This document shows, piece after piece, positions 30,864 to 46,767 of a stretch of DNA of 61,812 bases. This DNA is from a virus. The position numbers and the translations under genes were made by a program. Numbering within the stretch: position 1 is the stretch's first letter; every line of letters starts with the position of its first letter. The notes under the pieces were generated by a model. The model worked only from the letters and a program-made list of their open reading frames with translations, was not told the origin of the DNA and searched no databases. Location of the stretch: positions 1-61,812 of IMG/VR virus record IMGVR_UViG_3300035183_000056; one strand, written 5' to 3'.

Positions 30864-31691
30864 TTAGGTAGTCCTTCCAGACATAAAGTCAAAAGTGTTA
30901 ATGACATGCGGTCCAACTGCGATGCTAAAGGCCGGGTTATGGACTTGGCTGCACTCAAACCCGGTAATATCAATACACTGGCGATAGACCAAACGCCCCG
31001 AACCGTCTCTGTAAGTAGGACGTCTTGGCTTAGTGTGGTCACAGAAGTAGTCTACGCCTCCCTTACCAACGTGTAGGCCGCAAATAGAGCATTTGTAGGC
31101 CTTGAAATAGAAGCCGACTGAATAGGCATTCTTTTCACCCGTCAGGATGCTATTGACCAACAGCGGGTCTTTAGATCGGTCATAGCCTAACAACAACACC
31201 AATTTGTAGTATTTGCCCCCACCAAACCGTCGTAACGGTCGTAAAAATACATCCAAGATAACACCACGTGCTTTCGTTATGTCTTGGTTATCATGCTCCA
31301 CATACGTTGGCTTGCCCCGGAAGGTCTTGAATGCTTGCATGCCCAACGTTGGTTTAAACTCCAAGAACTCTCCCATAGTAACGCTGTCACCATTAGTATT
31401 CGGTATTTCCGAAAACATTGACGGAACGGGCACCAGTACATAATCCTGGAGGTTAGGGCTCAACCTGTAGTGCTTAGAAGCAAAGGGTAACCACAAGTTG
31501 GCTTCTAGGTCTCGGGCCCCACCTAAAGAGGCAGATACTTCACCTGGGTCCTTCTTGTAAAGTTCGATAGGCGCTAGACTGGAGCCAAAGCTTTGACTAG
31601 AGTACCCAAGATCAAGGTCGAGGTCCACATCACCGTCAGACTCTGAGGTGGATGAAAGAGAGGTGAGACTGGGGAGAGAATTACGGCGCAT
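30864..31691 (-). CDS. Prohead maturation protease, 275 aa
   Basis: Resembles the phage prohead core proteases (T4 gp21-like, herpes-assemblin fold). A His in YVEHDN (residue 133) and a Ser in AYSVGFYF (residue 191) are the candidate catalytic pair, and between them is ARGVILDVFLRPL followed by KLVLLLGYDRS. A C-x-x-C ... C-x-H cluster after the Ser (residues 201-219) may bind zinc, as seen in some large phages. It should cut scaffold and capsid precursors. It stands at the head of the scaffold-capsid group, as in T4 21-22-23. Confidence 0.75.
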   Translation of the reverse strand: MRRNSLPSLTSLSSTSESDGDVDLDLDLGYSSQSFGSSLAPIELYKKDPGEVSASLGGARDLEANLWLPFASKHYRLSPNLQDYVLVPVPSMFSEIPNTNGDSVTMGEFLEFKPTLGMQAFKTFRGKPTYVEHDNQDITKARGVILDVFLRPLRRFGGGKYYKLVLLLGYDRSKDPLLVNSILTGEKNAYSVGFYFKAYKCSICGLHVGKGGVDYFCDHTKPRRPTYRDGSGRLVYRQCIDITGFECSQVHNPAFSIAVGPHVINTFDFMSGRTT

Positions 31692-32891: not shown

Positions 32892-34529
32892 TTATTTAGC
32901 ACCTGGGCTTTTCAAGAAGTTAGGCTTCCGCAAGCCCAGGTCATCAAAGTACTTGATTAGCACGCCAGGGTCTATATAGCTCTTGAGAGCGGTAGACGAG
33001 GTGACTTTATCCCCTGTTCTATGACTCAGAAGCTCACCAATCTTCTCAAACTCCTTCTTCACCCAAGACTCCACGGCGCTCTGCTTCGGCTTTTCCGATT
33101 TCTTAAAGGGCGCTTTCTTCAACAAGTCCATCGCCATGCGCGTAGCAGCAATGTTGCGGAACTTGTGGGGAGACAGGGGGATGTTCTTCTCTAACAAGTA
33201 AGCACGGACAGCAGCAGCCTTAACTGGCTTGCCTTTGTACGTAAATACCATGTCGTCTTTGTTCTTACCTTTCAACAAGGTTGATAGGATGCGGCGAACT
33301 TTCTTAGCCACTGGTGTATTGGTCTTATAAACAGCCGTATTTAGGCCTTTCTTCTTACCCAGATAAGAGATTTCGATTGCAGATGGTGTCAGCTTGATAT
33401 GGCCTACCAACATGGTCGTAACACCGTAGGTGGTCTCACCGGCTGTCGCATTGCCTTCACCACCAATGCGAAGCGACGTAGAATACAGAAGCTCAACGAT
33501 AGCGGCCAACACACCGTTTTTGTCGTCTTTGTCCAAGTCCGTCAGCCAGAGCTTACGGTAACCGTCTTCATTATTGATGAAGTCATGTACCATGCCAAAC
33601 CGTTTGGTCTGATTAGAGCCCAGGAAGTCAACGGTCCGATAGTAGTGACGGAAATCCAGTCCGAGCATTACGTAGGTATTGTCCGTAGCAGGGTCGTACT
33701 TGGGGTTCATCTTCACAGCACCGATAGGTGCTCTATCTAGCAGCTTCCCTTCTTTAGTCCAACCCTGCCCTTTTTCATCCATCTGGCCACCGATGAATCC
33801 TACTGGGAGATTGTTGGTCAACCCAATCTTCTGGAAATGAGATCGTAAGTCCTCAATGGACACTAGGTCTTTACCGGAAGCACGAACGTAACGTTGCACT
33901 TCCTTCTTGGTGGCCGTGTTCAGAACCTTTACCAACTTAGCATACTGGCTATACGTATCCGGATCTTCCTCACGAAGCCTTTGGCTTTCCTTCATGGTCA
34001 AGAAGCAACTGTTGGCCCGTCCAGTAAACTTCTTAACCAAAGGCCCAAGAGCTTTAGCCGCTTTCTTAGCATCAACACCGTCAATAGCCACGGACTCTGG
34101 TTCTTCATCCGTAAACAGCGAGATCAAGCGAGGCATCTTAAGCGCTGCTACTTCCTTGTGAATGTTCTGCCAAGACCTGTCGGAAGCAGTCCGCAGGTTG
34201 GTAATGATGTTCTTGATGAGCTTGAGCTGAGCAAAGGAAATAGATTTGTCACCGTCGAATTCCTTGACTTTGTCCTTCAATAAGGCTGCCAACTCCTGGG
34301 CATGCTCTTCCGTAAATCCTTTCCTTAATAAGAATATATTGAGGTACTTGGTATACTGCTTACGCATACCAAATTCTGTTAAGAACTCCTTCGAGTCTTC
34401 TGCCCAACGTTTGAAGTCCATGATAACTGGCTGGACATCATTGGAGTTCATGTCCAGCAAGATTGCCAACAAAGTAGCAATGAACGCATCGGAACTGGAC
34501 GAATTAACGCTTATTGATATGAGTTTCAT
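32892..34529 (-). CDS. Type IB DNA topoisomerase, 545 aa
   Basis: The C-terminal 250 residues match poxvirus/bacterial topoisomerase IB: S-L-R-I-G-G-E-G-N followed by TTYGVTTMLVGHIKLT and YLGKKKG, then PLSPHKFRNIAATRMAM, and a final LKSYIDP with the probable catalytic Tyr near residue 520. The enzyme relaxes DNA through a 3'-phosphotyrosine link. At 545 residues it is longer than poxvirus enzymes (about 314); residues 1-200 are an extension. The N-terminus MKLISISVNSSSSD belongs to the shared leader family. The ATG follows AGAGGTCGTTACCT and overlaps the previous gene. Confidence 0.88.
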   Translation of the reverse strand: MKLISISVNSSSSDAFIATLLAILLDMNSNDVQPVIMDFKRWAEDSKEFLTEFGMRKQYTKYLNIFLLRKGFTEEHAQELAALLKDKVKEFDGDKSISFAQLKLIKNIITNLRTASDRSWQNIHKEVAALKMPRLISLFTDEEPESVAIDGVDAKKAAKALGPLVKKFTGRANSCFLTMKESQRLREEDPDTYSQYAKLVKVLNTATKKEVQRYVRASGKDLVSIEDLRSHFQKIGLTNNLPVGFIGGQMDEKGQGWTKEGKLLDRAPIGAVKMNPKYDPATDNTYVMLGLDFRHYYRTVDFLGSNQTKRFGMVHDFINNEDGYRKLWLTDLDKDDKNGVLAAIVELLYSTSLRIGGEGNATAGETTYGVTTMLVGHIKLTPSAIEISYLGKKKGLNTAVYKTNTPVAKKVRRILSTLLKGKNKDDMVFTYKGKPVKAAAVRAYLLEKNIPLSPHKFRNIAATRMAMDLLKKAPFKKSEKPKQSAVESWVKKEFEKIGELLSHRTGDKVTSSTALKSYIDPGVLIKYFDDLGLRKPNFLKSPGAK

Positions 34530-35304
34530 AGGTAACGACCTCTAAAGCTTGGGCTGGAATGTCTCCGGTGTATAAGTACACCGCGTAGTTGGTTGCTTTG
34601 TGATGGTGAGAGATATGGATTTTGAAATGGTCCGGATCTAGGTCCATCTTATTCGTGTCTACCGAAAGCATGGTGTAGTCAGACAGAGCCGCGTGAACAT
34701 ACTTAATCGGCTCTCTACGTTCCAGCCTTAGCTTCACCAAAGACCCTTTTGCTCCCTCTGGGCTCAGTGCTAATCTATATGGTTCATCATAGGGTGCGTT
34801 GGGAAGGCCAGACCGTAGGGCATCCAGCACTTCGTCATTAGGCAACTCCATGTAGAAATGTTCCGGTATGAATTCATCAATTATGAAGAAGGTGGACGGA
34901 TCCCTAGGCATAGGGATAAGCTGGGTGTCATGCCCTTCATCACTAAACCTAGTAGTACCTGGGTGAACATAAGGGGGTAAGGGCGCCCGACACTTGTATA
35001 TGTCCCCCTCATCAATCTTGAATGGGGTGAATAAAGGCATCGTACCTAGATCGTCTTTAAGATCAACGGGTACGGGAATCCACACCCGTTTATCCGCCCA
35101 CCGATAAGCAAAGAACTGATCCGTCAGGTCTGTGCAGGCTATGCCAAGTAAAGGCAAGTGGTCACAGTAGTTGGAAAAGGCTCGCCCTACAGTATGGCCT
35201 TGGAGTTTCAGACGATCAATAAAGAAGAATAGGGCTTCGACCTTGGATGTCGGGAGGGATGAAAACTTCTTACACGTGGTAGCCAAAGCTTTTTGAAGCG
35301 ACAT
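34504..35304 (-). CDS. Hypothetical protein, 266 aa
   Basis: Unknown soluble protein rich in Pro and aromatic residues, with an RYGG-like beta pattern absent and no catalytic motif seen. The frame could start at 35325, but the ATG at 35304 (MSLQKALATT) is preceded by GAGGGTCACCAA, whose GAGG overlaps the upstream gene's stop. It therefore looks translationally coupled. It overlaps the topoisomerase start by 26 bases. Confidence 0.65.
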   Translation of the reverse strand: MSLQKALATTCKKFSSLPTSKVEALFFFIDRLKLQGHTVGRAFSNYCDHLPLLGIACTDLTDQFFAYRWADKRVWIPVPVDLKDDLGTMPLFTPFKIDEGDIYKCRAPLPPYVHPGTTRFSDEGHDTQLIPMPRDPSTFFIIDEFIPEHFYMELPNDEVLDALRSGLPNAPYDEPYRLALSPEGAKGSLVKLRLERREPIKYVHAALSDYTMLSVDTNKMDLDPDHFKIHISHHHKATNYAVYLYTGDIPAQALEVVTYETHINKR

Positions 35305-35314
35305 TTGGTGACCC

Positions 35315-35908
35315 TCAATCAGCAACAGCCGGGATGGATGGGTAGACTAACTTCGACTTGAAGTCCCCGTTCCACACGTAGAACCGGTTACTATCACCAC
35401 ATACCTCAATGGCCGCCCCATAACTCGAACAGGCCTCAATGCCTTTGACTAAGTCCTTGCTCATCTTGGGAAGACCTTTCAACTCGATGCGGTCATTACC
35501 GTCCCCGTCCCAGGAGATGCCGAAAACACCGGAGTGACCAACAGCACCATTATACTGGATCATTTGCAACAAGTTGGTCACCCTAGACACGCAATCCGGG
35601 CTACCTGTGATAGTAACGTCTAGGGAAACACTGGACTTCCCAGCCTTCGCAATAAAGGTCGGGCTAGTAGCAGAAGTAGACTCGGCTTTGTGATTTTCCA
35701 TATTCTCAGCTAAGTTGGCTGCCAGCCGGGTCATAGCCTTCTTGAATTTATCAACATTCCCATTAACAAAAGCTTCCGCTATGGTCTGCCCTATGTCACC
35801 AGATAACTGACGCATTAAGGCTGATAGAAACGTGCTCCTAGGGCCCTTCTTGGCCTTACTTTTCGATTTATGCCCGTTACCTTTGGACAGGGATACTTGA
35901 ATCTTCAT
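35315..35908 (-). CDS. Leader-family protein with a domain shared with 36865-37095, 197 aa
   Basis: Starts MKIQVSLSKG, a member of the shared N-terminal leader set, followed by a basic KSKSKAKKG stretch. The C-terminal 110 residues contain VSLDVTITGSPDCVSRVTNL and DGDGNDRIELKG, which resemble VTIKGACADRFLDFLTMLE and DGGGVDRVILGD of the 76-residue protein downstream. Function unknown. The ATG at 35908 follows GGAGGTTGGTA and overlaps the lipase stop (TAATG), so I prefer it to 35914. Confidence 0.65.
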   Translation of the reverse strand: MKIQVSLSKGNGHKSKSKAKKGPRSTFLSALMRQLSGDIGQTIAEAFVNGNVDKFKKAMTRLAANLAENMENHKAESTSATSPTFIAKAGKSSVSLDVTITGSPDCVSRVTNLLQMIQYNGAVGHSGVFGISWDGDGNDRIELKGLPKMSKDLVKGIEACSSYGAAIEVCGDSNRFYVWNGDFKSKLVYPSIPAVAD

Positions 35909-36753
35909 TACCAACCTCCGTCGCCTAACGCATCTTGAATATTTCGGATATACAGGTCTATACTGTGATCTTTCAAGTCCAAATTACTTACGTTTAGCAT
36001 GATGGATGACAGGTGTAGTTTTTCTGCGTAAGCGCAGGGAAACCAGGCGTATTGGTTGGCGTCAGCCATAAACATAAACTCGGAACACATTTGGCAATAC
36101 ATACCACGAATTAGTGATAGAAAACTCACAGGTGGTAGTTGAGGAACTGGATCCCTCTCATTTACCACACGGATCAAGGGTAAGCACCTAAATGCTTTAG
36201 CGCCATCCCTGTCCGTTAACTTAGGCTGACCAAAAGTGTAAGACACATCTAGTGGATAGCCTTCCATATACAAGTACATAGCCACCAAGCTACTAACCGC
36301 TGCCCCGAGACTATGTCCAGTCACAGTAAGCCCGTAACCATCAAGGAGATTAGGTCTGATTAGGTCCATAGCTTCTTTAGCGGAGGTTAAAAACCCGGCA
36401 TGAACGTCAATACCAAGTCGCCTTGACCGTTTCTTAACGTACTTAATATTGGTCCCCATATTGTTAGAATTGGCAGTCCCTCTACCTATTAAGAACTGCT
36501 CCTTAGTCTCATGGTCTGTTTCCAAAATTAGTCGTACAGAATCCGAGGTGTAAAATATCTGTACAGCCTTAGCTGGTAGTCCAGCACAAGTTTCACTTGG
36601 GTTGGCAGCACCTAAGTGAGTCCGGATAACTTCCTCGTCCTCATAAGCTAGTTGTGACCTACGCGCTTGCTCCAGCATATCCAAAAGGTCGACTTCGCCA
36701 TTTAGAACCTTGCATCCCCTTGTTTTTATGTGAGAAAGAAGTGTCCTGGACAT
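35908..36753 (-). CDS. Class 3 lipase-like alpha/beta hydrolase, 281 aa
   Basis: Contains VTGHSLGAAVSSLVAMYLY (nucleophile Ser148 in G-H-S-L-G), IDVHAGFL before it, and YTFGQPKLTDRDGAKAF and RVVNERDPVPQLPP after it (probable acid Asp201). This arrangement is diagnostic of the fungal/plant lipase class 3 fold. The catalytic His should lie in the last 60 residues. No signal peptide is visible. Substrate is unknown (lipid, lipopolysaccharide acyl chain or other ester). Unusual in a phage; it lies in the leader-protein block but lacks the leader itself. AGGAG lies nine bases before the ATG. Confidence 0.85.
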   Translation of the reverse strand: MSRTLLSHIKTRGCKVLNGEVDLLDMLEQARRSQLAYEDEEVIRTHLGAANPSETCAGLPAKAVQIFYTSDSVRLILETDHETKEQFLIGRGTANSNNMGTNIKYVKKRSRRLGIDVHAGFLTSAKEAMDLIRPNLLDGYGLTVTGHSLGAAVSSLVAMYLYMEGYPLDVSYTFGQPKLTDRDGAKAFRCLPLIRVVNERDPVPQLPPVSFLSLIRGMYCQMCSEFMFMADANQYAWFPCAYAEKLHLSSIMLNVSNLDLKDHSIDLYIRNIQDALGDGGW

Positions 36754-36809
36754 GGTGTTACTGCTCCTTAAACCATAGTACCTGGAAATTAGAAATATCC
36801 GACAAAATT

Positions 36810-36834
36810 AAAGGGCTGCAATTTGCAGCCCTTT
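36810..36834 (-). terminator. Rho-independent terminator after the 76-aa gene
   Basis: Arms AAAGGGCTGCA (36810-36820) and TGCAGCCCTTT (36824-36834) with a 3-base loop; on the minus strand the stem runs into TTTAATTTT. It lies between the gene stopping at 36865 and the lipase start at 36753, so the lipase may need its own promoter or read-through. Confidence 0.8.
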
Positions 36835-36864
36835 GGTAGTTACAAGTCTTACTGTTGGAGTGGC

Positions 36865-37095
36865 CTAGGTGTCACCGAGGATTACTCTGTCTACCCCACC
36901 TCCGTCAATGTAAAGCTTAAAGGTAGGCCCTCCGCCTACGGTGGCATCAATGCTTATACTTTTTCTGGAATGGGATTCACGCTCTAACATGGTTAGAAAG
37001 TCCAGGAATCTGTCAGCGCAAGCCCCTTTAATCGTAACCTTGGTGGATTTACGCTGATTGGAGTAGTAGTCACTGAGGCTAATTTTGATCTTCAT
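36865..37095 (-). CDS. Leader-family small protein, 76 aa
   Basis: Begins MKIKISLSDYYSNQ, one of the clearest copies of the shared leader. The rest resembles the C-terminal domain of the 197-residue protein at 35315-35908 (V-T-I-K-G ... D-G-G-G-V-D-R-V-I-L). Its short length makes it close to the minimal leader plus one domain. GGAGC precedes the ATG. Function unknown. Confidence 0.65.
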   Translation of the reverse strand: MKIKISLSDYYSNQRKSTKVTIKGACADRFLDFLTMLERESHSRKSISIDATVGGGPTFKLYIDGGGVDRVILGDT

Positions 37096-37127
37096 AGCAT
37101 AGAGCTCCGTAAGTTAATGGACGGTAA

Positions 37128-38285
37128 TTACCAGACAAGGCTAAGGTCGACGTTACGTAAGTAGGCCACCACTTCCTTAACTATCACGCCAGCTAGTCCG
37201 TCTTTAAACTTGTACAAGACTGCATCTCCTACTTGTACCTGGTTATCTACTAAAGTTTGAACCCCTTGCTTAACCCTCTCTGCTTTCTTCGCCTGTATTT
37301 CATTGGTTTTCTCGTAAAAGTCACCACGGTACTTCTTGTAATCATCATCGGACAGCTTACCAACTACCTCCACCAGACCACGACGCACTGTAATCCACCC
37401 AGTTTTGTTGGTAGTCCTAGCGATTACGTGAATCCTCCAATATTTAGTCCCTTTATGAGAGCCGATAATTACATACTGAAAACCTTTAAAATTGAGGAGC
37501 TCTCCTGGTAGCACCATCATTGGAATCTTTTGTTGAGGGTAAACCTCTGTAGGTGCTTCTTGTGGTATGGTGACTTTGGTAGTTTTGCTGCGTCGAGCAG
37601 CCGGACTGGCCGGCGTTTCATTATCTGAATCCACCGTAATTGGCGGCCTTACACTTAGCTTCTTGGATTGCGGGACTGAAATCTGGATAGTCTCCTTTTC
37701 ATTCTCTAGTGTGAATTGCCTATCTAAGCTAGGCAGCATCTTGGTTTTAGTCACCAAGTAGGTCTTACCTTTTTGAACCACTAAGAACCCAGGCTTGACG
37801 ACCCTAGCTACTTCTTTGGTAGGCGGACCGAACTTAGCTAGGTCGATTTCTGGCCCTTCTGGAGGAGTGGTCGCCGCCTTTTTGCCCTTAGATTTCTCAC
37901 CCGCTGCTGACTTTGCTTTCTCCTTTTCTGCCTTCTCCTTCTCCTTTTCTTTGTCTTTGACGGCCTTTTCTTTCTCCTTTGCCTTGTCTTCCTTAGCTTT
38001 ATCTAAAGCTTTAGTGTACAAAGTCTTAGCTTCAACGTCGTCGTACTCTGATTTCTTACCCTTGACCAAAATAGGCTTGACCCATTTAAGGCCCGCACCT
38101 TTAACGACTGCATCAGACCCATCGTTAAATTCTATAGTTAAGGCACCAGTTCTGGCCTTTTTGACCACTTGTCCAGCCTACCACTCGTTTTTGGCAATGC
38201 GGACTATAACTTTAGAGCCTTTATCCAGTAGATCCGCAGGACTAGCACTTAAAGACATGCCACTTAAAGAAACTTGGACTTTCAT
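37128..38285 (-). pseudogene. Leader-family protein with in-frame TAG at codon 36, about 385 aa
   Basis: From ATG at 38285 the frame reads MKVQVSLSGMSLSASPADLL and on to IAKNEW, then TAG (38180-38178), then AGQVVKKARTG and 347 more codons to TAA. The region around the TAG lines up with KDEWYSGTV of the neighbouring protein at 38782-39306, so TAG stands where that protein has Tyr. The rest has an SH3/KOW-like N-terminal part, a Lys/Glu-rich coiled segment (residues about 90-135) and a second SH3-like region near the C-terminus. It may be a nonsense mutant, an amber read-through gene, or re-started at GTG 38168. Confidence 0.65.
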
Positions 38286-38303
38286 AAAGTATCCTCGATT
38301 AGG

Positions 38304-38774
38304 TTATTCGACAACTTCCCTTAGGAAATAACGATAGCCCTTTACTGGTCTACTTACCTTAAAGTCAGCAGCGTATATCAGCCTCGGGCTAGTTAAAAAC
38401 TTAGGGTTAGAATACAATTTAATTCTCTTAGGTTCTGATTCAGGAGCTGCAAACAGGAAACCATGAATGGCTCGACCTTGGGACATCTGGAAGTCCGTGT
38501 AATCCTCCATAATTTTGACTATAGTCCTGAATATTTCGATAGACTTTCCCATATTAAGGATGTTGGAGGCCATACGACCTGTGGTTCGGTCATACCTAGT
38601 AAACGAGATTTCAACTACTTGAAAATCATCATAGCCAGGTAAGGTTATGTTAAGGTGGCCTACGCCGTTTATTAGGACCTCTATAGGGTCACCCGGCCCA
38701 ACTTCCACCCAATACGTTTGGTCGAGACCTAGGCCACCATGTCTGGAATATGGTAAAGAAATATAAACTCTCAT
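38304..38774 (-). CDS. Leader-family protein, 156 aa
   Basis: Starts MRVYISLPYSRHGG, a variant of the leader. A beta-rich middle (GHLNITLPGYDDFQVVEISF) is followed by HGFLFAAPESEPKRIKLYSN, a pattern I have seen only as unannotated in large-phage proteins. No catalytic residues recognised. GAGGT precedes the ATG, overlapping the upstream TGA. Confidence 0.62.
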   Translation of the reverse strand: MRVYISLPYSRHGGLGLDQTYWVEVGPGDPIEVLINGVGHLNITLPGYDDFQVVEISFTRYDRTTGRMASNILNMGKSIEIFRTIVKIMEDYTDFQMSQGRAIHGFLFAAPESEPKRIKLYSNPKFLTSPRLIYAADFKVSRPVKGYRYFLREVVE

Positions 38775-38781
38775 ATAAACC

Positions 38782-39306
38782 TCAGGTCCCTAAGTCTATT
38801 ATTTGACTGTATTTGACCCAAACCAAGTTACCTCGGCCCCGCCAGACTCCGATTTCATTATTCTTATGGTCAGTCATACCGACAACGGTTGGTCCAATCA
38901 AGTCCCCGAAGTCTACAACCACTTTATCACCTCGTGAAATGCCCTTCAAGCGATCTTCGCTAATCCTTTGACCTTTCTTTTTGAGTTTAGAGACCTTAAT
39001 AGGCTGAGTCTCCTGCTTTTCAGCAGTCTTAGCTTTAACCTTATCTTCGGCTACCAAAGCTTTGACCTCAGCATCCCCATATGGAGCCTTAGACTTTTTG
39101 AGTTTAGCTTTTAAAGGCTTCACAAACCTGGCTGTCTCTTTGATAGAAAAGTCAACATCTGACCCGTCGTCGAGATCGGCGTAAACTTTGGTTTTGGTTA
39201 TCCTAGTAACAGTACCAGAATACCACTCATCTTTGGCGGCCTTAACTAGCACTCTTTGACCTACAGTATACTTCCTGTATACTGATAGAGATATAAATAG
39301 CTTCAT
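38782..39306 (-). CDS. Leader-family SH3/KOW-like protein, 174 aa
   Basis: Begins MKLFISLSVYRKY after a good AGAGG site; the longer frame to 39348 lacks one. Residues about 15-60 form an SH3/Tudor-like unit (VGQRVLVKAAKDEWYSGTVT ... DLDDGSD), closely similar to the N-terminal unit of the TAG-interrupted neighbour. A Lys-rich linker follows, then a second small beta unit (GDKVVVDFGDLIGPTVVGMT) ending in a W-V-K-Y-S-Q-I. The paralogy with 37128-38285 is visible by eye. Function unknown. Confidence 0.68.
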   Translation of the reverse strand: MKLFISLSVYRKYTVGQRVLVKAAKDEWYSGTVTRITKTKVYADLDDGSDVDFSIKETARFVKPLKAKLKKSKAPYGDAEVKALVAEDKVKAKTAEKQETQPIKVSKLKKKGQRISEDRLKGISRGDKVVVDFGDLIGPTVVGMTDHKNNEIGVWRGRGNLVWVKYSQIIDLGT

Positions 39307-39376
39307 GTTAACCTCTACAAGGCGAGACCTTTTATTAAGGTCTCGCATAAAGTTTCAATACCATTCCAGACCTTTA

Positions 39377-40008
39377 TTAGTCCCAGTCATAGTCTTGCTC
39401 ATGGAATTTCTCTCTAAGGTGCTTTGGTATGACGCTAAGGGTTTTGGCGCCGTATATCTCACCTCCGACTTTTAGGTCTTCCGGTAACTCAGTGATATTA
39501 GTGTACGTCTCATGGTCAGGCTATGTGCTACGGTCAACTTCTTCGGTAATCTGATTATTTTGGTACCGCTAATGTCTAAGGAGATAACTTTAAGGTTATC
39601 TGGAAGGGAAGCTACAGGCGTGTTGGCTAGAATAACAGATTGTGGGTCATTGGACTCCATAATACGCCATACGTTACCAGACACATTTAGGTACCTTTCC
39701 GAATAGGAAACAAATTCTTTTATAACAGCCTTTGATTTGGTAAATGACTCAGCCTTCCTACCTTTAATAGGTTTCCCCTTATACAACTTATCAAGGGCTG
39801 ACCATGTTAGTTTGACATCTCTATACGCAAGGTCAATATAGGTACGGAAACTAGGTGGTATATGCTGAATCTCCTTTAGCAACTTCTTTGATACGGACGT
39901 ATCAAAGGATCCGTGGTTCTGCCATTCAGCCACAGCCTGAATACACGCCTAAGTATACTTAGGCGTGTAGTTAGTCTTAACACCGCTTTGAGATATAAGG
40001 ATTTTCAT
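39377..40008 (-). pseudogene. Broken leader-family leucine-rich-repeat gene
   Basis: The ATG at 40008 gives MKILISQSGVKTNYTPKYT and then TAG (39951-39949) inside a 28-bp palindrome. The same frame continues with a helical region and LRR-like units (NLKVISLDISGTKIIRLPKK). Around 39508-39513 one base appears to be missing: the adjoining frame continues the repeat as YTNITELPEDLKVGGEIYG and ends FHEQDYDWD at TAA 39379-39377. So the gene carries a nonsense codon and a frameshift. Intact, it would be about 210 residues. LRR proteins in phages usually mediate binding; the partner is unknown. Confidence 0.7.
39942..39969. repeat. 28-bp perfect palindrome
   Basis: TACACGCCTAAGTA followed by TACTTAGGCGTGTA is its own reverse complement, without a spacer. 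It lies just after the ligase gene and includes the TAG of the LRR gene. It could be a cruciform, a dimeric-protein site or a tight mRNA hairpin over the start of the LRR message. Confidence 0.9.
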
Positions 40009-40019
40009 TGTGTTACCTT

Positions 40020-42080
40020 TTAAATGGACAATTTGTATCTACGACGAAATAACTGCTCGGTCAAGACAGGGATGCCACGATCTCGGGCAACCTTTAACTT
40101 TGAGCTAGATCCGTTCGGATCCTTGGCCAAAAGTATGGTCGCTGTCTTCGCGGAACTAGCAATCGTTCCCCCGTTCTTGATGACTAAGGCTTCCAGCTCT
40201 GCGGACCTAAAGCCAGTCATTAGCACTGCTTGACCTTTCAAAGCAGACCCTGTCACCTTAGGTTTCTTAGCTTTGACCTCGGCTTTGAGCTTAGATTCCT
40301 TGTACCAAGCTTTGAACTTGGGGAATCCCTGGGCAAACTTCTCAGCCGAGGTGTCACTGAATCCGTCTATTTGCAAAGCCATGCTCACCAGCTTTTGCTT
40401 AGAGAATTTTATGGATGGGTCCATTAACTTGGGGTACGCTTCAACCAAAGGCTTGAGCTTTTTCTCACCAATTCCTCTGCCAAATAGGCCAGTAGCACCC
40501 ATCAACTTAGCTAGTGGAATATTGTCTAGCTTAGAGTGAATGCTTTGATGGAGCTTGGCCGCGGACTTGGTCTGGAACCCAGGTACAGCCAGGAAGTTCG
40601 AAGCAGACGCCCTAATGATCTTGATTTCTGAGTCCAGCCCAATGGATATCAGCTTAGTGACCGTAGACTCAGCCAAGTTCTCAACTCCTAGAGACTTGAA
40701 GAAAAAGGTGATTCGTTTAGCTTTAGCAGTGGACGTACCAGCTTTCATGTAGATGTCCACCTTATTGGCCGTCCAAGTAAAGTCTCCTTTGGGGAGCGCC
40801 GGTTTCTTTGCTCCTTTTTCCACGCTAACGACATAGGGGATTACTTCACCGGACCTAGTAACAAGGATCTCTGCCCCAGGCCCTATATGTCGAACTGGCA
40901 AACCCTTGTTACGATCTTTATATGAAAAGCCATTGACAATGAAGAAAGCATTGTGTCCAGTGGCGTACTCAACAGTTACCCCGGCCAGCCTAGTTGGTGG
41001 AATAATAATACGGGGTTTTAAGTAACTGTGCTTGGACTCACGCCACTCCACCTCTTTAACCTTCACTTTTACGAAGTTGTCTTCTGAATTGACTTTGAAG
41101 GCAACAGCGTAATCTGGGTGATGTGTCCCTGGAGGAGGTCTTACTGTCTTTTTATCTTGTTCAATCACTAGCCCGTCTATGCCGAACTTGGACTTGAGCT
41201 TACGGCTGGCTAACAGCTTGGTCAAAATAGCTGGGCTTAAGGTCTTGTAAACCTTATTTGCTGGTGTTTTGAATCCCCAGGCCTTGAGCTTCGCATAAGC
41301 TTCGGAGGGTTTAGACCTAGGGTGAATTACCTCATGCGCCAGTACCTGGAGGTACTTAAGGGCTGGGGACTTGGAATTTAACCGGTTTACTACTCCGACA
41401 GACAAGTTTCTAGCATTCTCATAGACCTTGTCAGCTTCACCACTCTTAAGGAAGGACTTAAAATCGGCTTCCGTTATAATACCTTCTGCCCTAATGACCA
41501 CGTCCTTCTTTTCAGACAAGGTCATGGGGACTTTGATGTGACCAATAAGGTGGGAAACGTCTTGGCCAACCGTGCCGTTACCTCGGGTATAGATAGCAGT
41601 AAGCTTACCCTTAGTATATACCAGTTCCAAAGACAAGCCATCTAGCTTGTCGGACAATAGATACGGACCAGGATGGTCATCCAACCATTCTTCTACGTCT
41701 TCCGGTTTGTCACCCTTTATCTTGTCTAAAGAGTACATAGGGTGGGGCAAATGCACTTTTTTACGCCCGCCTTTGACTTCCGGAACGCTAGGAGCTGCAC
41801 CAACTTCCTTTAGAACAGAAGCATTAGGTTTTCTAGCTCTGAGGACGTCCTTCAACTCATCGTAGTCTTGGTCTGATACAGGGCTCTTACCTTTGTCATG
41901 GTAAGCTGCATTTAAATACCTAATAATTGCCATTAGGTCGTTAACTTTAAGACTCTCTGCAAAACCAACGGCATCTTTGGCTATTTGCCTTAACTGAGCT
42001 GCTGTTGGTTTTAATATACGGGCCGCTGCTGCGGCCGTGGCTGTTTGACCATCGCCAAATAACGATATTACCATTTCCAT
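40020..42080 (-). CDS. ligA: NAD-dependent DNA ligase without zinc-finger cysteines, 686 aa
   Basis: Seals DNA nicks using NAD. Residues 40-80 hold the Ia-like NMN-binding region (VSDQDYDELKDVLRA). The adenylation motif K-L-D-G is near residue 143, followed by IYTRGNGTVGQDVS and VIRAEGIIT. An OB fold follows, then helix-hairpin-helix repeats (about 475-600) and a C-terminal BRCT domain (about 615-686, GQAVLMTGFRSAELEALVIK). Where cellular LigA has a Cys4 zinc finger (near residues 425-445 here) the sequence is ALPKGDFTWTANKVDIYM, without cysteines. The N-terminus MEMVISLFGDGQ resembles the shared leader. Confidence 0.92.
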   Translation of the reverse strand: MEMVISLFGDGQTATAAAAARILKPTAAQLRQIAKDAVGFAESLKVNDLMAIIRYLNAAYHDKGKSPVSDQDYDELKDVLRARKPNASVLKEVGAAPSVPEVKGGRKKVHLPHPMYSLDKIKGDKPEDVEEWLDDHPGPYLLSDKLDGLSLELVYTKGKLTAIYTRGNGTVGQDVSHLIGHIKVPMTLSEKKDVVIRAEGIITEADFKSFLKSGEADKVYENARNLSVGVVNRLNSKSPALKYLQVLAHEVIHPRSKPSEAYAKLKAWGFKTPANKVYKTLSPAILTKLLASRKLKSKFGIDGLVIEQDKKTVRPPPGTHHPDYAVAFKVNSEDNFVKVKVKEVEWRESKHSYLKPRIIIPPTRLAGVTVEYATGHNAFFIVNGFSYKDRNKGLPVRHIGPGAEILVTRSGEVIPYVVSVEKGAKKPALPKGDFTWTANKVDIYMKAGTSTAKAKRITFFFKSLGVENLAESTVTKLISIGLDSEIKIIRASASNFLAVPGFQTKSAAKLHQSIHSKLDNIPLAKLMGATGLFGRGIGEKKLKPLVEAYPKLMDPSIKFSKQKLVSMALQIDGFSDTSAEKFAQGFPKFKAWYKESKLKAEVKAKKPKVTGSALKGQAVLMTGFRSAELEALVIKNGGTIASSAKTATILLAKDPNGSSSKLKVARDRGIPVLTEQLFRRRYKLSI

Positions 42081-42125
42081 ATAACACTCTTATGGTAGGT
42101 AGGAATTAAGGGTTTCTATAAAGCT

Positions 42126-43143
42126 CTAATAAGGATGTAATGATACTAGACCTATTATGGCATCACTAGGTGTTGTAGCTTCCGACCAAGTGTCTATCAA
42201 GCTGTGGCCTCTACTGAATATATGCCCATTTCCACCGATGGTTAAGTATCCAGATTGAGTTATGACTATACTTTGTTGATAAGGTAGCCAATTGACCCAC
42301 ATGTTGTTCGGAAGAGTATCCAAAGTCCAGGTAACACCATCATCAGTTATGCTCAAGGGGATAAGGGTATCGTGCCCTGGGTCTTGGGACCAACCTAAAA
42401 AAGTTTGCCAGACTGGATGGCTAATCCCAAACCCCAGTGGCTCGTTCACCCCTGGTAAATGAGAAGACCAGTTTAGTCCGTCTGTAGTTGTTGCTACCTG
42501 GAATGGGCCAATATCCACTGTATCGTTTATAACAACCCTTAACCCGAAGGGTGTGTCATTAAACCAACAAAGGTCTAAGCCCGATGACTGATAAGCCCCG
42601 CCTGGCGGAAAGCCCAGGTCGTTAGGGCTAATCAAAGGACTATACGCACTCAAATAATTCGTTTGGTAAATAAAGGGGACAGTTGGGTCACTAGACCTAC
42701 AGGTCATGGCTAACCAAGTGTTACCCCACAACCAGCTAGATTCGTTGGTAGGTCCAGTGAATTTAATAACGTCAATTAAAGCTCCTCCATTTATAGAAGA
42801 CGTAATGGATGCCCAATTATCAGCCCTAAGCCTAGGTAAGCTTGAGTATTTACACCGTCTAAGTCAAAAACTAACAGCCAATAACCATCACCTATGTACC
42901 TAAAAGACGGCACCCCTATCGAAGAAACGTCAGTCCAAGATAAGTCTGGTGTAGAGTTAATGGACCAAGTAGCCCCATAGTCTACAGAGCTAATGACCTT
43001 AAAGGCTGACCCTAACAAGCCCAGTGCTATAATAGTACCGTTCCCATCTGAAACTCCATACTGTATGGTGTCAATACCTGGTGGATAAGCTACCGGTGTA
43101 TAGGTTTGGCCCGGACTGGGCTTGGGTGTTTGTGAAAAATCAT
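42126..43143 (-). pseudogene. Frameshifted sialidase/BNR-like beta-propeller gene
   Basis: An ATG at 43143 overlaps the upstream TGA. After the T5 run at 43135-43139 the coding frame shifts to one reading QTPKPSPGQTYTPVAYPPGI. It then runs through DYGATWSINS and DLSWTDVSS to GVNTQAYLGL, where one base seems missing in the GGG at 42824-42826. The next frame goes on as ADNWASITSSINGGALIDV through TTTDGLNWSSH and ITDDGVTWT to TAG at 42126. Repeated DG-x-x-W motifs are typical of BNR/sialidase-like propellers. Restoring two bases gives about 339 residues. It may be decayed, or hold assembly errors in homopolymers. Confidence 0.65.
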
Positions 43144-43439
43144 AGTCTACCTCTTACTTGACCTTTGGTACGTGGAGTAGTACGTTTTCGTCTGAGGACG
43201 AGGTTGTCACATAGAGCTTCAACCGGAAGAATGGTTCCGCTAACACAAGATCGGCCTACTTTACCTTTGAAGACTAGGCCTTCCATGGCCAAAAGTTCCA
43301 CTAGCTCTAGTTGGATATCTAAAGCTTCCTCTTTAGAAGAACATGGCCTGTTATAGCCAGCTTTATCAGGATGGTCTGGAAACCAGACTACGTAAGGTTG
43401 TACCTCACCTAATCTATTTAACTGGTCCTGGATATCCAT
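43140..43439 (-). CDS. Hypothetical protein, 99 aa
   Basis: Small protein with a helical, acidic middle (KEEALDIQLELVELLAMEG) and a basic C-terminus (RRKRTTPRTKGQVRG). The longest frame starts at TTG 43460, but the ATG at 43439 has GGTGA before it. No family recognised. Its TGA overlaps the ATG of the broken BNR-like gene. Confidence 0.6.
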   Translation of the reverse strand: MDIQDQLNRLGEVQPYVVWFPDHPDKAGYNRPCSSKEEALDIQLELVELLAMEGLVFKGKVGRSCVSGTILPVEALCDNLVLRRKRTTPRTKGQVRGRL

Positions 43440-43450
43440 AGGGTCACCGT

Positions 43451-44377
43451 TTAAGTCCAATCGTCGTGGTCCACCAAACCGCTGTAGTCATCTAGGTCAT
43501 GACCAATATCCGTATCCAACTCATAGTCCTCGTCATCGCCTAGGTTAATAGTGAGCTTTGAGGGTCTGAGTTTGCCACTATCCCTCAGTTTATCCACAGT
43601 CTGCTTAATCAGGTCATACCTGTCCTCTTTGGACAAAGGAGCTACGACTGACGGCTTAGAAGGTGGCGTAACCACCTCAGGCTGCTTAGCTTGTGGTTGA
43701 GCCTTGATAGGATGTTTCCGTGTCTGTTTAGCCTTAGTGGCTACAGCAGGTACATCGGCTTGCGGACTGGGCTTCGGAGCCTCAGGTTTCAACTCCCCGA
43801 GTGTTTTACCTTGTTTCACAGTAACACTGGAAGTCTTTGGCTGTTTTGGCTTCTGGTCTTGCTGCTTATTCAGTACAGGTTGCTTCTTACTGAAAACCAG
43901 TAAAGGATTTAAAGTCTTAGTATCCACGACTATGACGTAATCTGATCTGTCCTTCAGAGCTAGCTTATGCTTGTCCTTAGAAGGACTATAGACACCAAAA
44001 ACTACGCCGGGGGATAAGGTAATCTCCTTGGTCTTATAGACCAACCGTTTCTTCTTACCTAGATACTTGTACCATACGTAGGCAGACCCAACACTCAAGT
44101 CATCGACTGAAACAGTTAACGGGTTCTTACCTTTATACTCCGAGCTTGCGTCCATCAGCTTGTCAGACTTAGGTATAGGAGTAACAAAGACCGTCGCTGG
44201 GTCTTTCACTACAACCACGAAGTCATTCTTAGAATTATACTCTTGGACGCCATACAAGTCACCAGGCTTGACGGTCGCGGTGTTACCTTTCCCGTCATAA
44301 AGCTTGATGCCTTTAGCACCCTTGAACTTGAACCAGGTGAACTTGGACCAATCTCTCTGATCTGCTTTAGTTGCCAT
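43451..44377 (-). CDS. Protein with duplicated SH3-like domain, 308 aa
   Basis: Residues about 10-70 (FTWFKFKGAKGIKLYDGKG ... LYGVQEYNSKNDFVVVVKDP) and about 100-165 (VWYKYLGKKKRLVYKTKE ... FGVYSPSKDKHKLALKDR) are related, indicating an internal duplication. A Lys/Pro/Gln-rich disordered linker follows, then an acidic C-terminus (DDEDYELDTDIGHDLDDY). It may be a structural adapter. AAGGTG precedes the ATG and overlaps the upstream stop. Confidence 0.62.
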   Translation of the reverse strand: MATKADQRDWSKFTWFKFKGAKGIKLYDGKGNTATVKPGDLYGVQEYNSKNDFVVVVKDPATVFVTPIPKSDKLMDASSEYKGKNPLTVSVDDLSVGSAYVWYKYLGKKKRLVYKTKEITLSPGVVFGVYSPSKDKHKLALKDRSDYVIVVDTKTLNPLLVFSKKQPVLNKQQDQKPKQPKTSSVTVKQGKTLGELKPEAPKPSPQADVPAVATKAKQTRKHPIKAQPQAKQPEVVTPPSKPSVVAPLSKEDRYDLIKQTVDKLRDSGKLRPSKLTINLGDDEDYELDTDIGHDLDDYSGLVDHDDWT

Positions 44378-44379
44378 GC

Positions 44380-44802
44380 TTACACCTTCTTGGCTTTAAG
44401 TGGATTATGCCCCCATATTAGAAGGCTGGTGTGTTTACGGGTCCTTTTACCTTTGTCGTCATACAACGGTCCTTTACCACCTTTCATTCTGGAAATGAAG
44501 GAAATCTGTCGCTTAGCCCATTCCCACATGGCCGGTGTCCACTTGGAGGGCTTGGAGGCCTTCATTTTCAATATCCAACGGGCAGACTCTCGTCCACTCT
44601 TGATTCCCTGTGAATCAGCCTGAGCTTTAGTAAGCCCAGCAGCTTTGCCTTCTTCGGAATCCATGAAAGCCCGCAATTGCTTGGCCGTCATATTGACCAG
44701 AGTTTTCCACTTGGCATAAGTGGCTTTTTGGTCAGCATCCAAACCTTTACCATCATCCGTAGCAGCAGTAATAGCAGCAGATAGCGATACTCGAATCTTC
44801 AT
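44380..44802 (-). CDS. Leader-family protein with a common phage domain, 140 aa
   Basis: Starts MKIRVSLSAAITAATDDG, a clear copy of the leader, and is the first gene after the portal. The body has MTAKQLRAFMDSEEGKAAGL and W-T-P-A-M-W-E-W-A-K-R-Q-I-S-F-I-x-R-M, a pattern I recognise from unnamed proteins in many phage genomes, with no known activity. Portal's TAG lies 9 bases before this ATG in the same frame, so read-through would fuse the two. Confidence 0.68.
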   Translation of the reverse strand: MKIRVSLSAAITAATDDGKGLDADQKATYAKWKTLVNMTAKQLRAFMDSEEGKAAGLTKAQADSQGIKSGRESARWILKMKASKPSKWTPAMWEWAKRQISFISRMKGGKGPLYDDKGKRTRKHTSLLIWGHNPLKAKKV

Positions 44803-44811
44803 GGGGTCGAC

Positions 44812-46767
44812 CTATATGACGGTTGTTTCAGTCTTACCTTTCTTCGGCGTAGTCGAACTAGCGTAAGCCCCATTATTTTTAGCCGCTTTCATGGCTTTGA
44901 GGATTCGCTTGTTTATGACTTCGTTAGCCTTCCGTTGATTGATTATATGCTTGGGTTTGCCAGTCTTGGTCTTGTCCGAAGCATAACCTAGCTCACCGAA
45001 GTCTCTATTCAATAGGGGTACTCTGCCTTTCGAAGCCAATACAGCCGAGCCATGACGACCCGACGGATCCGAGGACAGCAAAGGTAACATCTTGGAATCG
45101 TAGCCAGAGGATGCAAGAGCCGCCGCGGCGGCAGCTGCCACTGAGGATTCAGACACTTCCTCCCCTTCGCCGCCTTCTGGTTTGGGTGTCAAGGCTGCAA
45201 TCTGCTTGGCATATTCTGCCAGCTTCTTACGTAAGACTAAGTCTTCTTCCTTCTGGTTTAGAAGCTCATCCAAGTTGAGGCCGCCGGCTGCTGCTAGTAT
45301 CCGCAGGGGTACCGGAACACCCTTTTCACTCATGGAATTCAGCATGTCCATGTAAGAGGAGTCCCCCTCCGGCTTAAGATTCTTAGACCAAGTAACTGTC
45401 GGGATAAACAGCTTAGATCCGTCGTTTAGAGCGAATAGGGCCTCCTCAGGAGAAACAAAGTCAGCTAACCCGTCCCTAATCGTGAGCTTCTTATTAGACA
45501 TAACAAACCCATTCACCAATGAAATCATCGGGAACAGTTTGTTATATAGGACCTTGCGCGTAATCATGTCACGGTATGACCGTATCATGTCGATGAATAC
45601 CGTCAATCCTTGTTCTGTGGTGTTCCAATTAGAGTCGCCAGATAAGAAAGACTCACTAATCCCCAAAGCTCTAAGCTTGTGGGCTAATACGCTGTCCTGG
45701 TAGTCGGAGACCTTCCAGAACTCACCCCCTTGACGTATTTCCTCAGTAATTACACCGTTTCTAGTTGCAATAATCGCACCGAGCGGGTCGCTATCAGCAT
45801 TGGCGAACAGGTCAGTCATGAACTCCATGTCAGCCAAGGTTGGATCCCAGTTTTCACCGTCCCCTAGGGTTAGGTGCAGAATTCCCCGTTGACGACGCGC
45901 AGACTCAACCAAGGTCCCTCGAAAGAGGTTTTTCTCAATCAAGTAATAAGGGAGGATGCGCTTGAAATAGGAGGTCCCCATACCAGGGGAGCTAAAGGTC
46001 TTACGAGGAATAAATAAGGTGCTGAGTGGGTCAAGCTCAATGTGGCCCTTAATTATCTTATCGACGGTTTCCCTACCTATCATATCAACAATCCGTTTTA
46101 TCCTAGGACTATCCTTCTTAGCTAAGATAGCCTTGACTTCATCAGGGAAGTCAACGGTGATGATAGGGTCGATACTATAAAAGGGCAAGAACTCAATCTT
46201 GGCCTTCTCGATGGAATGCGGCATTACATCCGTGAATACTCGTTTTTCCTTGTTGAAAAGCAAAGAACTCAAATGGGTACCTAACACGAGGTAATCCACG
46301 CTAAGCTCTGGCAAGAACGTCCTCATATTGAGGCGTTCAAGGTTCTCATTATAGACTTGGCTGACCTTGGTGGATAGCTTATTGTTGTTGTCTAACCCAC
46401 CTAAGGTAAACTCACTGAAAGGCAAGAACGAGATGAGGTCTACCGCTGAGCCAGCTACTGAGTCGAAATAGTACATATCTCGAAACAGTCTATAAATGAT
46501 CCCTGACTTCTCAGTCTCCGATATAATACCCAACAGCATCGGATCAGTGTCGATGGTGATGGGGTTGTTGGAAACCTGGACGTTCGGACCCATGCCTGGT
46601 AAGCTAGACATGGTTGAATGACTAACGTAGTCTTCACCGCTTGAGCCAGGTTTCTTCTTTTTCTTTATGCCAGACAGATCACACCCTAAGGTAGCATTCT
46701 TTGCCTTCCCTTGGTCAATAGGCCTGGGTGCTATGGACGGATTACCGCTTTTCTTTATATTGAGCAT
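44812..46767 (-). CDS. Portal protein, 651 aa
   Basis: Directly downstream of the terminase, as in T4 17-20. The sequence has the portal pattern: an N-terminal region (GIIYRLFRDMYYFDSVAGSA), a clip/stem region (SPGMGTSYFKRILPYYLIEK), WKVSDYQDSVLAHKLRALGI with ESFLSGDSNWN and a long helix SYRDMITRKVLYNKLFPMIS. This resembles portals of large T4-type phages. A Gly/Ala-rich C-terminal tail follows. It would form the dodecameric DNA entry ring. Confidence 0.82.
   Translation of the reverse strand: MLNIKKSGNPSIAPRPIDQGKAKNATLGCDLSGIKKKKKPGSSGEDYVSHSTMSSLPGMGPNVQVSNNPITIDTDPMLLGIISETEKSGIIYRLFRDMYYFDSVAGSAVDLISFLPFSEFTLGGLDNNNKLSTKVSQVYNENLERLNMRTFLPELSVDYLVLGTHLSSLLFNKEKRVFTDVMPHSIEKAKIEFLPFYSIDPIITVDFPDEVKAILAKKDSPRIKRIVDMIGRETVDKIIKGHIELDPLSTLFIPRKTFSSPGMGTSYFKRILPYYLIEKNLFRGTLVESARRQRGILHLTLGDGENWDPTLADMEFMTDLFANADSDPLGAIIATRNGVITEEIRQGGEFWKVSDYQDSVLAHKLRALGISESFLSGDSNWNTTEQGLTVFIDMIRSYRDMITRKVLYNKLFPMISLVNGFVMSNKKLTIRDGLADFVSPEEALFALNDGSKLFIPTVTWSKNLKPEGDSSYMDMLNSMSEKGVPVPLRILAAAGGLNLDELLNQKEEDLVLRKKLAEYAKQIAALTPKPEGGEGEEVSESSVAAAAAAALASSGYDSKMLPLLSSDPSGRHGSAVLASKGRVPLLNRDFGELGYASDKTKTGKPKHIINQRKANEVINKRILKAMKAAKNNGAYASSTTPKKGKTETTVI

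What the first reader, a model, noticed from the sequence alone, without database searches (positions are those of the whole stretch)
32892..44802. A shared N-terminal leader (M-K-hydrophobic-x-I/V-S-L-S) on at least nine unrelated proteins between portal and prohead protease
Seen: MKLISISVNS (topoisomerase IB), MKIQVSLSKG, MKIKISLSDY, MKVQVSLSGM, MRVYISLPYS, MKLFISLSVY, MKILISQSGV, MEMVISLFGD (ligase) and MKIRVSLSAA. The proteins behind the leader differ in fold and length, and several leader starts are set by good ribosome-binding sites. I saw no such start among the other genes in the window. Established: in T4, prohead-core genes 67 and 68 lie between portal and protease, and internal proteins share a short N-terminal capsid-targeting sequence starting MK. 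Inference: this is a sorting tag, perhaps for packing enzymes (ligase, topoisomerase IB) in the capsid for ejection with the DNA, or for another compartment. An alternative is a shared first beta-strand or gene-family spread.
Basis: partly seen in the sequence, partly recalled or inferred. Interest (0 to 1): 0.88.

Follow-up and report, generated by a model that had tools for sequence, protein, structure and literature searches.

The report
Jumbo-phage N-terminal protein address tag
A group of very large bacterial viruses puts the same short start sequence (M-x-I-x-I-S-L-S) on many otherwise unrelated, mostly DNA-handling proteins; it behaves like an address label, most likely for loading them into the virus head so that they enter the next cell with the DNA, but that destination is inferred and not yet shown.

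Summary
All nine leader starts lie where stated, between portal and prohead protease, and nowhere else in the window. Two sit on ORFs broken by an in-frame TAG.

The leader is not private to this phage. A profile made only from the window's nine leaders, run on seven PaBG/Lu11/Y3-type jumbo phages, hits 35 of 2,075 protein starts against 1 of 11,213 internal methionines (Fisher 1e-27), and 0 of 859 starts in T4, phiKZ and RHEph12. Consensus: M-[KEQ]-I-x-[IV]-S-L-S-(A).

Orthologues show leader, variable linker, conserved body (ligase, Nudix, GNAT, SH3-like); others start directly at the body, so it is a removable extension. Ser-6 codons split TCN 21 : AGY 20, so selection is on the peptide.

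Bodies are basic (median pI 9.2 vs 5.9) and include DarA_C and ART-PolyVal, families tied to head-packaged proteins. PaBG gp83, with a borderline leader, is a published virion protein.

Best reading: an N-terminal capsid-targeting tag, analogous to T4's and P1's but unrelated in sequence. No T4-like xxE cleavage signal was found. The portal-protease placement holds only in the window and its nearest relative. Capsid loading is inferred, not demonstrated.

The parts
44779..44802 (-). leader MKIRVSLS of gene 44380-44802 (140 aa, pI 10.4)
   Evidence: body matches Pfam DUF3140 at 1e-8
44380..44802 (-). leader gene: small basic protein of unknown function
42057..42080 (-). leader MEMVISLF of the NAD+ DNA ligase
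   Evidence: about 25-residue extension absent from PaBG and Lu11 ligases; G004 orthologue starts MSKIQVSLS, G001 orthologue MLTLNLSLS
40020..42080 (-). leader gene: NAD+-dependent DNA ligase (686 aa, pI 9.8)
   Evidence: phrog_3869 7e-138; Pfam ligase adenylation, OB and BRCT domains
39985..40008 (-). leader MKILISQS; ORF continues to 39472 through an in-frame TAG at 39951-39949
   Evidence: the TAG lies in a perfect 28-bp palindrome 39942-39969
39283..39306 (-). leader MKLFISLS of gene 38782-39306
   Evidence: G004 paralogues MKISISLS and MKLFISLS
38782..39306 (-). leader gene: small SH3/Tudor-like basic protein (174 aa, pI 9.8)
38751..38774 (-). leader MRVYISLP of gene 38304-38774 (156 aa, pI 8.8)
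38262..38285 (-). leader MKVQVSLS; ORF 38285-37128 interrupted by in-frame TAG 38180-38178; SH3-like, paralogue of 38782-39306
   Evidence: the TAG column is Y in the paralogue and L or Q in G004 homologues
37072..37095 (-). leader MKIKISLS of gene 36865-37095 (76 aa, pI 9.2)
35885..35908 (-). leader MKIQVSLS of gene 35315-35908 (197 aa, pI 9.3)
   Evidence: the G004 orthologue keeps the body but not the leader
34509..34529 (-). leader MKLISIS of topoisomerase IB
   Evidence: orthologues G001 MLRGFVSLSAV, PaBG MHTSLSAV, NCTB MLITLSRV, Lu11 MNVHIAVA
32892..34529 (-). leader gene: type IB topoisomerase (545 aa, pI 9.6)
   Evidence: PF01028 4e-18
44812..46767 (-). portal protein, upstream border of the leader block
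   Evidence: phrog_16240 8e-199
30864..31691 (-). prohead (head maturation) protease, downstream border
   Evidence: phrog_18299 1e-82
28370..30241 (-). large acidic protein in the position of the T4 gp22 scaffold; candidate docking partner (inference from position and composition)
   Evidence: phrog_20988 1e-60; sequence
35908..36753 (-). leaderless lipase inside the block (pI 6.2), internal contrast
   Evidence: PF01764 6e-20
34504..35304 (-). leaderless protein inside the block (pI 5.9), internal contrast
   Evidence: its G004 orthologue is leaderless too

Best explanation
The leader is a modular N-terminal targeting peptide of PaBG/Lu11/Y3-type jumbo phages. It is about 8 residues (M-[KEQ]-I-x-[IV]-S-L-S), alternates hydrophobic and small residues, and is followed by a flexible, hydrophobic-poor linker. 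It is carried by a set of mostly basic accessory proteins (topoisomerase IB, NAD+ ligase, Nudix, GNAT, ART, DarA-like, SH3-like and others). Most likely it docks these proteins on the prohead core or scaffold so that they are enclosed in the capsid and ejected with the DNA into the next cell. Shown here by sequence: the leader is real, lineage-wide, modular, selected as a peptide, on mostly basic proteins, and outside the folds. Inferred: binding to the core, packaging, and ejection. Whether it is cut off is open.
For: Cross-phage profile built from the window alone: 35/2075 N-termini at score 8 or more vs 1/11213 internal Met, Fisher 1.4e-27; controls T4, phiKZ and RHEph12 0/859. Consensus from 46 leaders in 8 phages: Ser-6 in 41/46 with TCN:AGY codons 21:20. 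Leader-linker-body in ligase (window, G004, G001 vs leaderless PaBG and Lu11), Nudix, GNAT and SH3-like proteins. Leader residues have the lowest AF2 confidence and body helices or strands start after them (weak models). Basic bodies, median pI 9.2 vs 5.9, MWU 6e-4; in the window block the leader proteins have pI 8.8-10.4 while the leaderless lipase and 34504-35304 have 6.2 and 5.9. Residues 9-25 poor in hydrophobics, P 4e-9. NCTB leader protein = DarA_C 4e-11, JA29 leader protein = ART-PolyVal 2e-27; P1 DarA and T4 Alt are head-packaged and Alt is injected (PMC5512222). PaBG gp83 (MLIKINLLEAVA) is a Coomassie-visible virion protein; its computed monoisotopic mass equals the published 35127.30 (PMC7412058). 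N-terminal capsid targeting has precedent in T4 and P1 DarB.
Against: gp83 is a borderline leader (profile score 1.2; 1.5% of internal Met reach that). No strong leader protein is in the 14-band PaBG list, though that list holds only Coomassie-abundant proteins. There is no excess of xxE motifs after the leader (39% vs 40%). Some leader genes lie far from head genes (Y3 165-174 kb vs MCP 104 kb; Yen9-02 scattered). Some close orthologues lack the leader.
Confidence: 0.6

Rival explanations
1. The leader is an address tag for a site other than the capsid, such as a replication or assembly focus, the membrane or a phage-made compartment in the infected cell.
For: Tagged proteins include general DNA enzymes (ligase, topoisomerase) useful in a replication focus, plus Nudix and GNAT; genes are scattered in Yen9-02 and Y3; no protease motif.
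Against: DarA_C and ART-PolyVal bodies and the portal-protease placement in the window and G004 point to the head. Core replication proteins (DNA polymerase, RecA, SSB) were not seen among the leader hits; the DnaB start is an ordinary N-terminus conserved with the DnaB body.
Confidence: 0.2
2. The leader is a docking peptide that brings the proteins together as one complex (for example a DNA-end or packaging complex at the portal) without being an encapsidation signal.
For: Ligase, topoisomerase IB and SH3-like proteins sit next to portal and terminase in the window and G004.
Against: Bodies such as Nudix, GNAT, ART and acidic low-complexity proteins have no evident place in one complex.
Confidence: 0.1
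3. The leader is the shared first beta-strand of related folds, or a relic of duplication of a 5' gene end.
For: Alternating hydrophobic pattern; a few true paralogue pairs exist (window SH3-like pair, NCTB 179534/180728, JA29 154885/156669).
Against: Ligase and Nudix folds start after the leader and exist without it; linkers vary in length; serine codons are mixed TCN and AGY and third positions are diverged; bodies share no similarity.
Confidence: 0.05
4. The conserved signal acts in translation or at the mRNA level (a start-region element) and the peptide is incidental.
For: It sits exactly at the start codon.
Against: Nucleotide identity is low: third positions of codons 3-8 are 38% identical between window leaders, and serine codon families are mixed.
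Confidence: 0.02

Closest known systems
T4 capsid-targeting sequence (CTS) of the internal proteins
   Same: Short N-terminal peptide shared by otherwise different proteins, basic cargo, and in the window the genes lie between portal and protease as T4 core genes do
   Different: No sequence similarity (MKTYQEFIAEA vs M-x-I-x-I-S-L-S; T4 internal proteins do not score); no excess of xxE protease sites; carried by enzymes such as ligase and topoisomerase; many more protein types
P1 Dar system N-terminal packaging signal (DarB N-terminal 30 residues)
   Same: N-terminal signal for head loading of anti-restriction proteins; a DarA_C-domain protein carries the leader in phage NCTB
   Different: The P1 authors found no consensus among Dar N-termini (PMC9024508); here the consensus is clear and on many proteins
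phiKZ/SPN3US inner-head protein propeptides
   Same: Jumbo phages with many ejected head proteins and a prohead protease
   Different: Several of their propeptides exceed 100 residues and are cut at xxE-type sites (PMC5694885); phiKZ starts do not match the leader
Polyvalent proteins (Iyer et al. 2017)
   Same: Overlapping effector domains (ART-PolyVal, DarA)
   Different: Here the domains are separate small proteins, each with its own leader, instead of being fused in one giant polypeptide

Membership tests
T4-type CTS | short N-terminal peptide shared by unrelated proteins of one phage | tested here: met
T4-type CTS | sequence related to T4 MKTYQEFIAEA | tested here: not met
   T4 internal proteins (MKTYQEF starts at 65718 and 66415) do not reach score 5
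T4-type CTS | removed by prohead protease after an xxE-type motif just behind the peptide | tested here: inconclusive
   no enrichment: 39% of leader proteins vs 40% of others have [ASGLIVP]xE in residues 9-26; the cleavage specificity of this protease is unknown
T4-type CTS | tagged proteins are inside the mature head | tested here: inconclusive
   only PaBG gp83, a borderline leader, is in published virion MS; no deep proteome found for this group
T4-type CTS | peptide sufficient to load a foreign protein into the head | not testable with these tools
   needs a fusion experiment
P1 Dar-type anti-restriction proteins | Dar-family domain encoded among head genes | tested here: met
   NCTB 181201(-) DarA_C 4e-11, among NCTB head genes; not present in the window itself
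phiKZ/SPN3US long-propeptide head proteins | long (often over 100 residues) cleaved N-terminal propeptide | tested here: not met
   leader about 8 residues, bodies start roughly 10-30 residues in
PaBG/Lu11/Y3 ('Lupandier') jumbo phages, for the window | portal, protease, MCP and topoisomerase IB of this group | tested here: met
   portal 49% to PaBG, MCP 49-54% to Y3, NCTB and G001, protease 51% to PaBG, topoisomerase IB in PaBG, NCTB and Lu11

The most novel reading that the evidence does not exclude
A previously undescribed class of short, modular capsid address tag, not homologous to the T4 CTS and perhaps not cleaved, that defines a large swappable set of head-packaged, injected proteins (including DNA ligase, topoisomerase IB, ADP-ribosyltransferases, Nudix and GNAT enzymes) across a whole group of jumbo phages.
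Probability: 0.5. Interest if true: 0.85.

Novelty: new variant of a known kind. Interest (0 to 1): 0.72.

Why it matters
If the tag means 'inside the head', it lets one read the injected proteome of a major jumbo-phage group directly from sequence, and it nominates about 6-10 unstudied early effectors or anti-defence proteins per phage. It would show ligase and topoisomerase IB delivered with the genome, perhaps to seal and relax incoming DNA at once. It also gives a compact handle for loading foreign proteins into large heads in laboratory phages. No description of it was found in the papers read on this group, on jumbo phages generally, or on capsid targeting.

Tried and rejected
Close-relative scans of viral contigs with topoisomerase and ligase found nothing; the portal scan and a leader DNA pattern did. 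Of the five contigs with the leader pattern only one (G004) proved to be a relative; the others look like chance matches. The 44380-44802 protein has no tblastn match in phage records.

Test for a T4-like xxE cleavage site after the leader: no enrichment. A second leader-like class in Y3 and Yen9-02 ('MSLIKL...ESxSAV') looked like a cleavage site but is restricted to a few partly homologous proteins; not claimed.

Reassigned TAG: rejected as a general code, because 9 of 58 genes end in TAG and no tRNA is in the window.

AF2 models are too weak for more than a hint; an alignment containing phage-collection sequences was not accepted.

Matching all PaBG virion bands to genes by monoisotopic mass gave exact matches for gp76, gp80, gp81, gp83 and gp240 only. 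No deep virion proteome for Y3, JA29 or Yen9-02 was found.
Full report
Setting. The window is a 61,812-bp virus record. Portal, terminase, protease and major capsid protein (MCP) place it with the PaBG/Lu11/Y3/NCTB group of jumbo myoviruses: portal 49% identical to Pseudomonas phage PaBG, MCP 49-54% to Y3, NCTB and the 220-kb contig G001 (IMGVR_UViG_3300011934_000017). Its closest held relative is G004 (IMGVR_UViG_3300012044_000002, 47 kb; portal 55%, MCP 64%), which has the same gene order portal - leader block - protease - MCP.

The observation. All nine leader starts exist on the minus strand between 34,529 and 44,802. Among 58 gene calls, only the ordinary DnaB N-terminus at 56685 comes near the profile elsewhere. 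Nine of nine inside a block of about 16 of about 60 genes has P about 8e-7. Two need a caveat: the ORFs behind MKVQVSLSGM and MKILISQSGV carry an in-frame TAG (38180-38178; 39951-39949). The first TAG aligns with Tyr in the paralogue and Leu or Gln in G004 homologues; the second lies in a perfect 28-bp palindrome. TAG is a normal stop for 9 of 58 genes, so this is not a general recoding.

Is it more than chance? A profile was made from the nine window leaders only and run on gene calls of seven related phages. The control was every internal methionine of the same proteins. At score 8 or more: 35 of 2,075 N-termini against 1 of 11,213 internal Met (Fisher 1.4e-27). Per phage at score 6 or more: Y3 9 (expected 0.18), Yen9-02 9 (0.17), JA29 8 (0.20), NCTB 6 (0.20), G001 6 (0.34), Lu11 4 (0.56), PaBG 2 (0). 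T4, phiKZ and RHEph12 together give 3 of 859 at 6 and 0 at 8. Orthologues across phages are not independent, but the counts within each phage are different genes, except two paralogue pairs (JA29 154885/156669, NCTB 179534/180728). At score 6 some false positives remain: the DnaB start of G004 scores 7.2.

What it looks like. From 46 leaders in eight phages: M, then K/E/Q, I, any, I/V, S (41 of 46), L (35), S (34), often A. Lu11 has its own variant, MKIQLA(V/L/T)A, on several proteins of its portal-topoisomerase block. Ser-6 codons split 21 TCN to 20 AGY, and leucine uses all six codons. Within the window, third positions of codons 3-8 are only 38% identical. The peptide is conserved, not the DNA, which argues against recent copying and against an RNA element.

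Not a first strand. The ligase leader of the window (MEMVISLFGDGQTA...), G004 (MSKIQVSLSTSG...) and G001 (MLTLNLSLSSNR...) is an extension that PaBG and Lu11 ligases lack. Nudix proteins of Y3, Yen9-02 and G001 show leader, a linker that varies in length, then the conserved SGV(I/V)PYR start; PaBG Nudix starts at the body. GNAT proteins of G001 and Yen9-02 and the SH3-like proteins of window and G004 follow the same plan. Residues 9-25 are poor in hydrophobic residues (4.1 vs 5.8, P 4e-9). AF2 gave the leader and linker the lowest confidence in the G001 Nudix (residues 1-30, pLDDT about 31-43) and the window ligase (1-20, 22-29), but these models are poor and count as a hint only.

What carries it. 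In the window: topoisomerase IB, NAD+ ligase, SH3-like proteins and small basic unknowns. In relatives: Nudix, GNAT, ART-PolyVal (JA29 165039, 2e-27), DarA_C (NCTB 181201, 4e-11), KMPT-N proteins (NCTB MLISLSAA), a coiled-coil-like protein shared by Y3, JA29 and Yen9-02, and a very acidic protein found in Y3, JA29, Yen9-02, NCTB, Lu11 and PaBG. The KMPT-N and DarA_C starts match by eye and by pattern but score low in the window profile because they are one residue short. Leader proteins are basic: median pI 9.2 against 5.9 (MWU 6e-4). In the window the leader proteins have pI 8.8-10.4, while the leaderless lipase and 34504-35304 have 6.2 and 5.9. A leaderless KMPT-N protein in the block (43451-44377) is basic too, so the split is not perfect.

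Function. T4 internal proteins and Alt are sent into the prohead by a short N-terminal CTS (PMC5694885), and P1 DarB by its first 30 residues (PMC9024508). DarA and Alt-type ARTs are textbook head-packaged proteins, and Alt is injected (PMC5512222). A shared tag on basic DNA enzymes, a DarA-type protein and an ART, with genes between portal and protease in the window and G004, is best read as the same kind of signal. The one direct link to particles is PaBG gp83 (MLIKINLLEAVAAKA...), band 9 of the published virion gel; its monoisotopic mass matches the published value. Its leader is borderline (score 1.2; reached by 1.5% of internal Met), so this is weak support.

What does not fit. No xxE motif excess follows the leader (39% vs 40%), so either it is not cut in the T4 manner or this protease has another rule. 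Leader genes are clustered overall (P 0.002) but not in Yen9-02, and in Y3 the cluster is 60 kb from the MCP. The portal-protease placement is therefore local to the window and G004. Individual proteins gain or lose the tag: the G004 orthologue of 35315-35908 lacks it. This fits a modular tag but also means it is not needed for folding or activity.

Steps shown and inferred. Shown by computation: existence, statistical excess, lineage distribution, modularity, peptide-level selection, basic cargo. Inferred: recognition by the prohead core (the acidic protein 28370-30241 in the scaffold position is a candidate by position only), packaging, ejection. Confidence in capsid loading 0.6; in some kind of protein address tag about 0.9.

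Novelty. Searches for capsid targeting, jumbo-phage internal proteins and this phage group found no description of the motif; subscription papers are not covered. It is filed as a new variant of a known kind: it works like a CTS, but it is not a member of the T4 CTS family by sequence.

Noticed in passing
window 38180-38178 and 39951-39949 (minus strand): In-frame TAG codons interrupt two leader genes while TAG is a normal stop elsewhere; could be nonsense mutations, assembly errors or readthrough.
   Followed up: partly
window 39942-39969: Perfect 28-bp palindrome TACACGCCTAAGTATACTTAGGCGTGTA inside the MKILISQS gene, containing its in-frame TAG.
   Followed up: partly
window 43142-42126 (minus strand): A beta-propeller-like gene seems split by two frameshifts (a 5-T run near 43139 and near 42810); sequencing error or decay.
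   Followed up: no
window 31770-32807 (plus strand): A lone plus-strand gene of 297-345 aa between topoisomerase IB and protease in an otherwise minus-strand region; no confident family match.
   Followed up: no
L003 9935-13267 (contig IMGVR_UViG_3300011934_000017): The portal gene carries a roughly 477-aa insertion with intein-like ends (CLTGDSLIP...VVHN-T) between portal residues 381 and 382.
   Followed up: no
Y3 162263, 166879, 167822, 205256, 145684; Yen9-02 63186, 85819 (starts): A second shared N-terminus, roughly MSLIKL-x(5-10)-ESxSAVxK, with a possible cleavage site SE/S; some homologues carry the main leader instead.
   Followed up: partly
Lu11 156980, 158064, 160208 and JA29_140/141: Homologous proteins with FHGTS or LYHFT motifs (ART-like by eye, no Pfam hit); Lu11 copies carry its leader variant MKIQLA, JA29 copies start at the domain.
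   Followed up: partly
NCTB 9071+, Y3 192311+, JA29 183030+, Yen9-02 110195+, Lu11 107150+, PaBG 109778-: A very acidic low-complexity protein that keeps the leader while much of the body diverges; candidate prohead core protein.
   Followed up: partly
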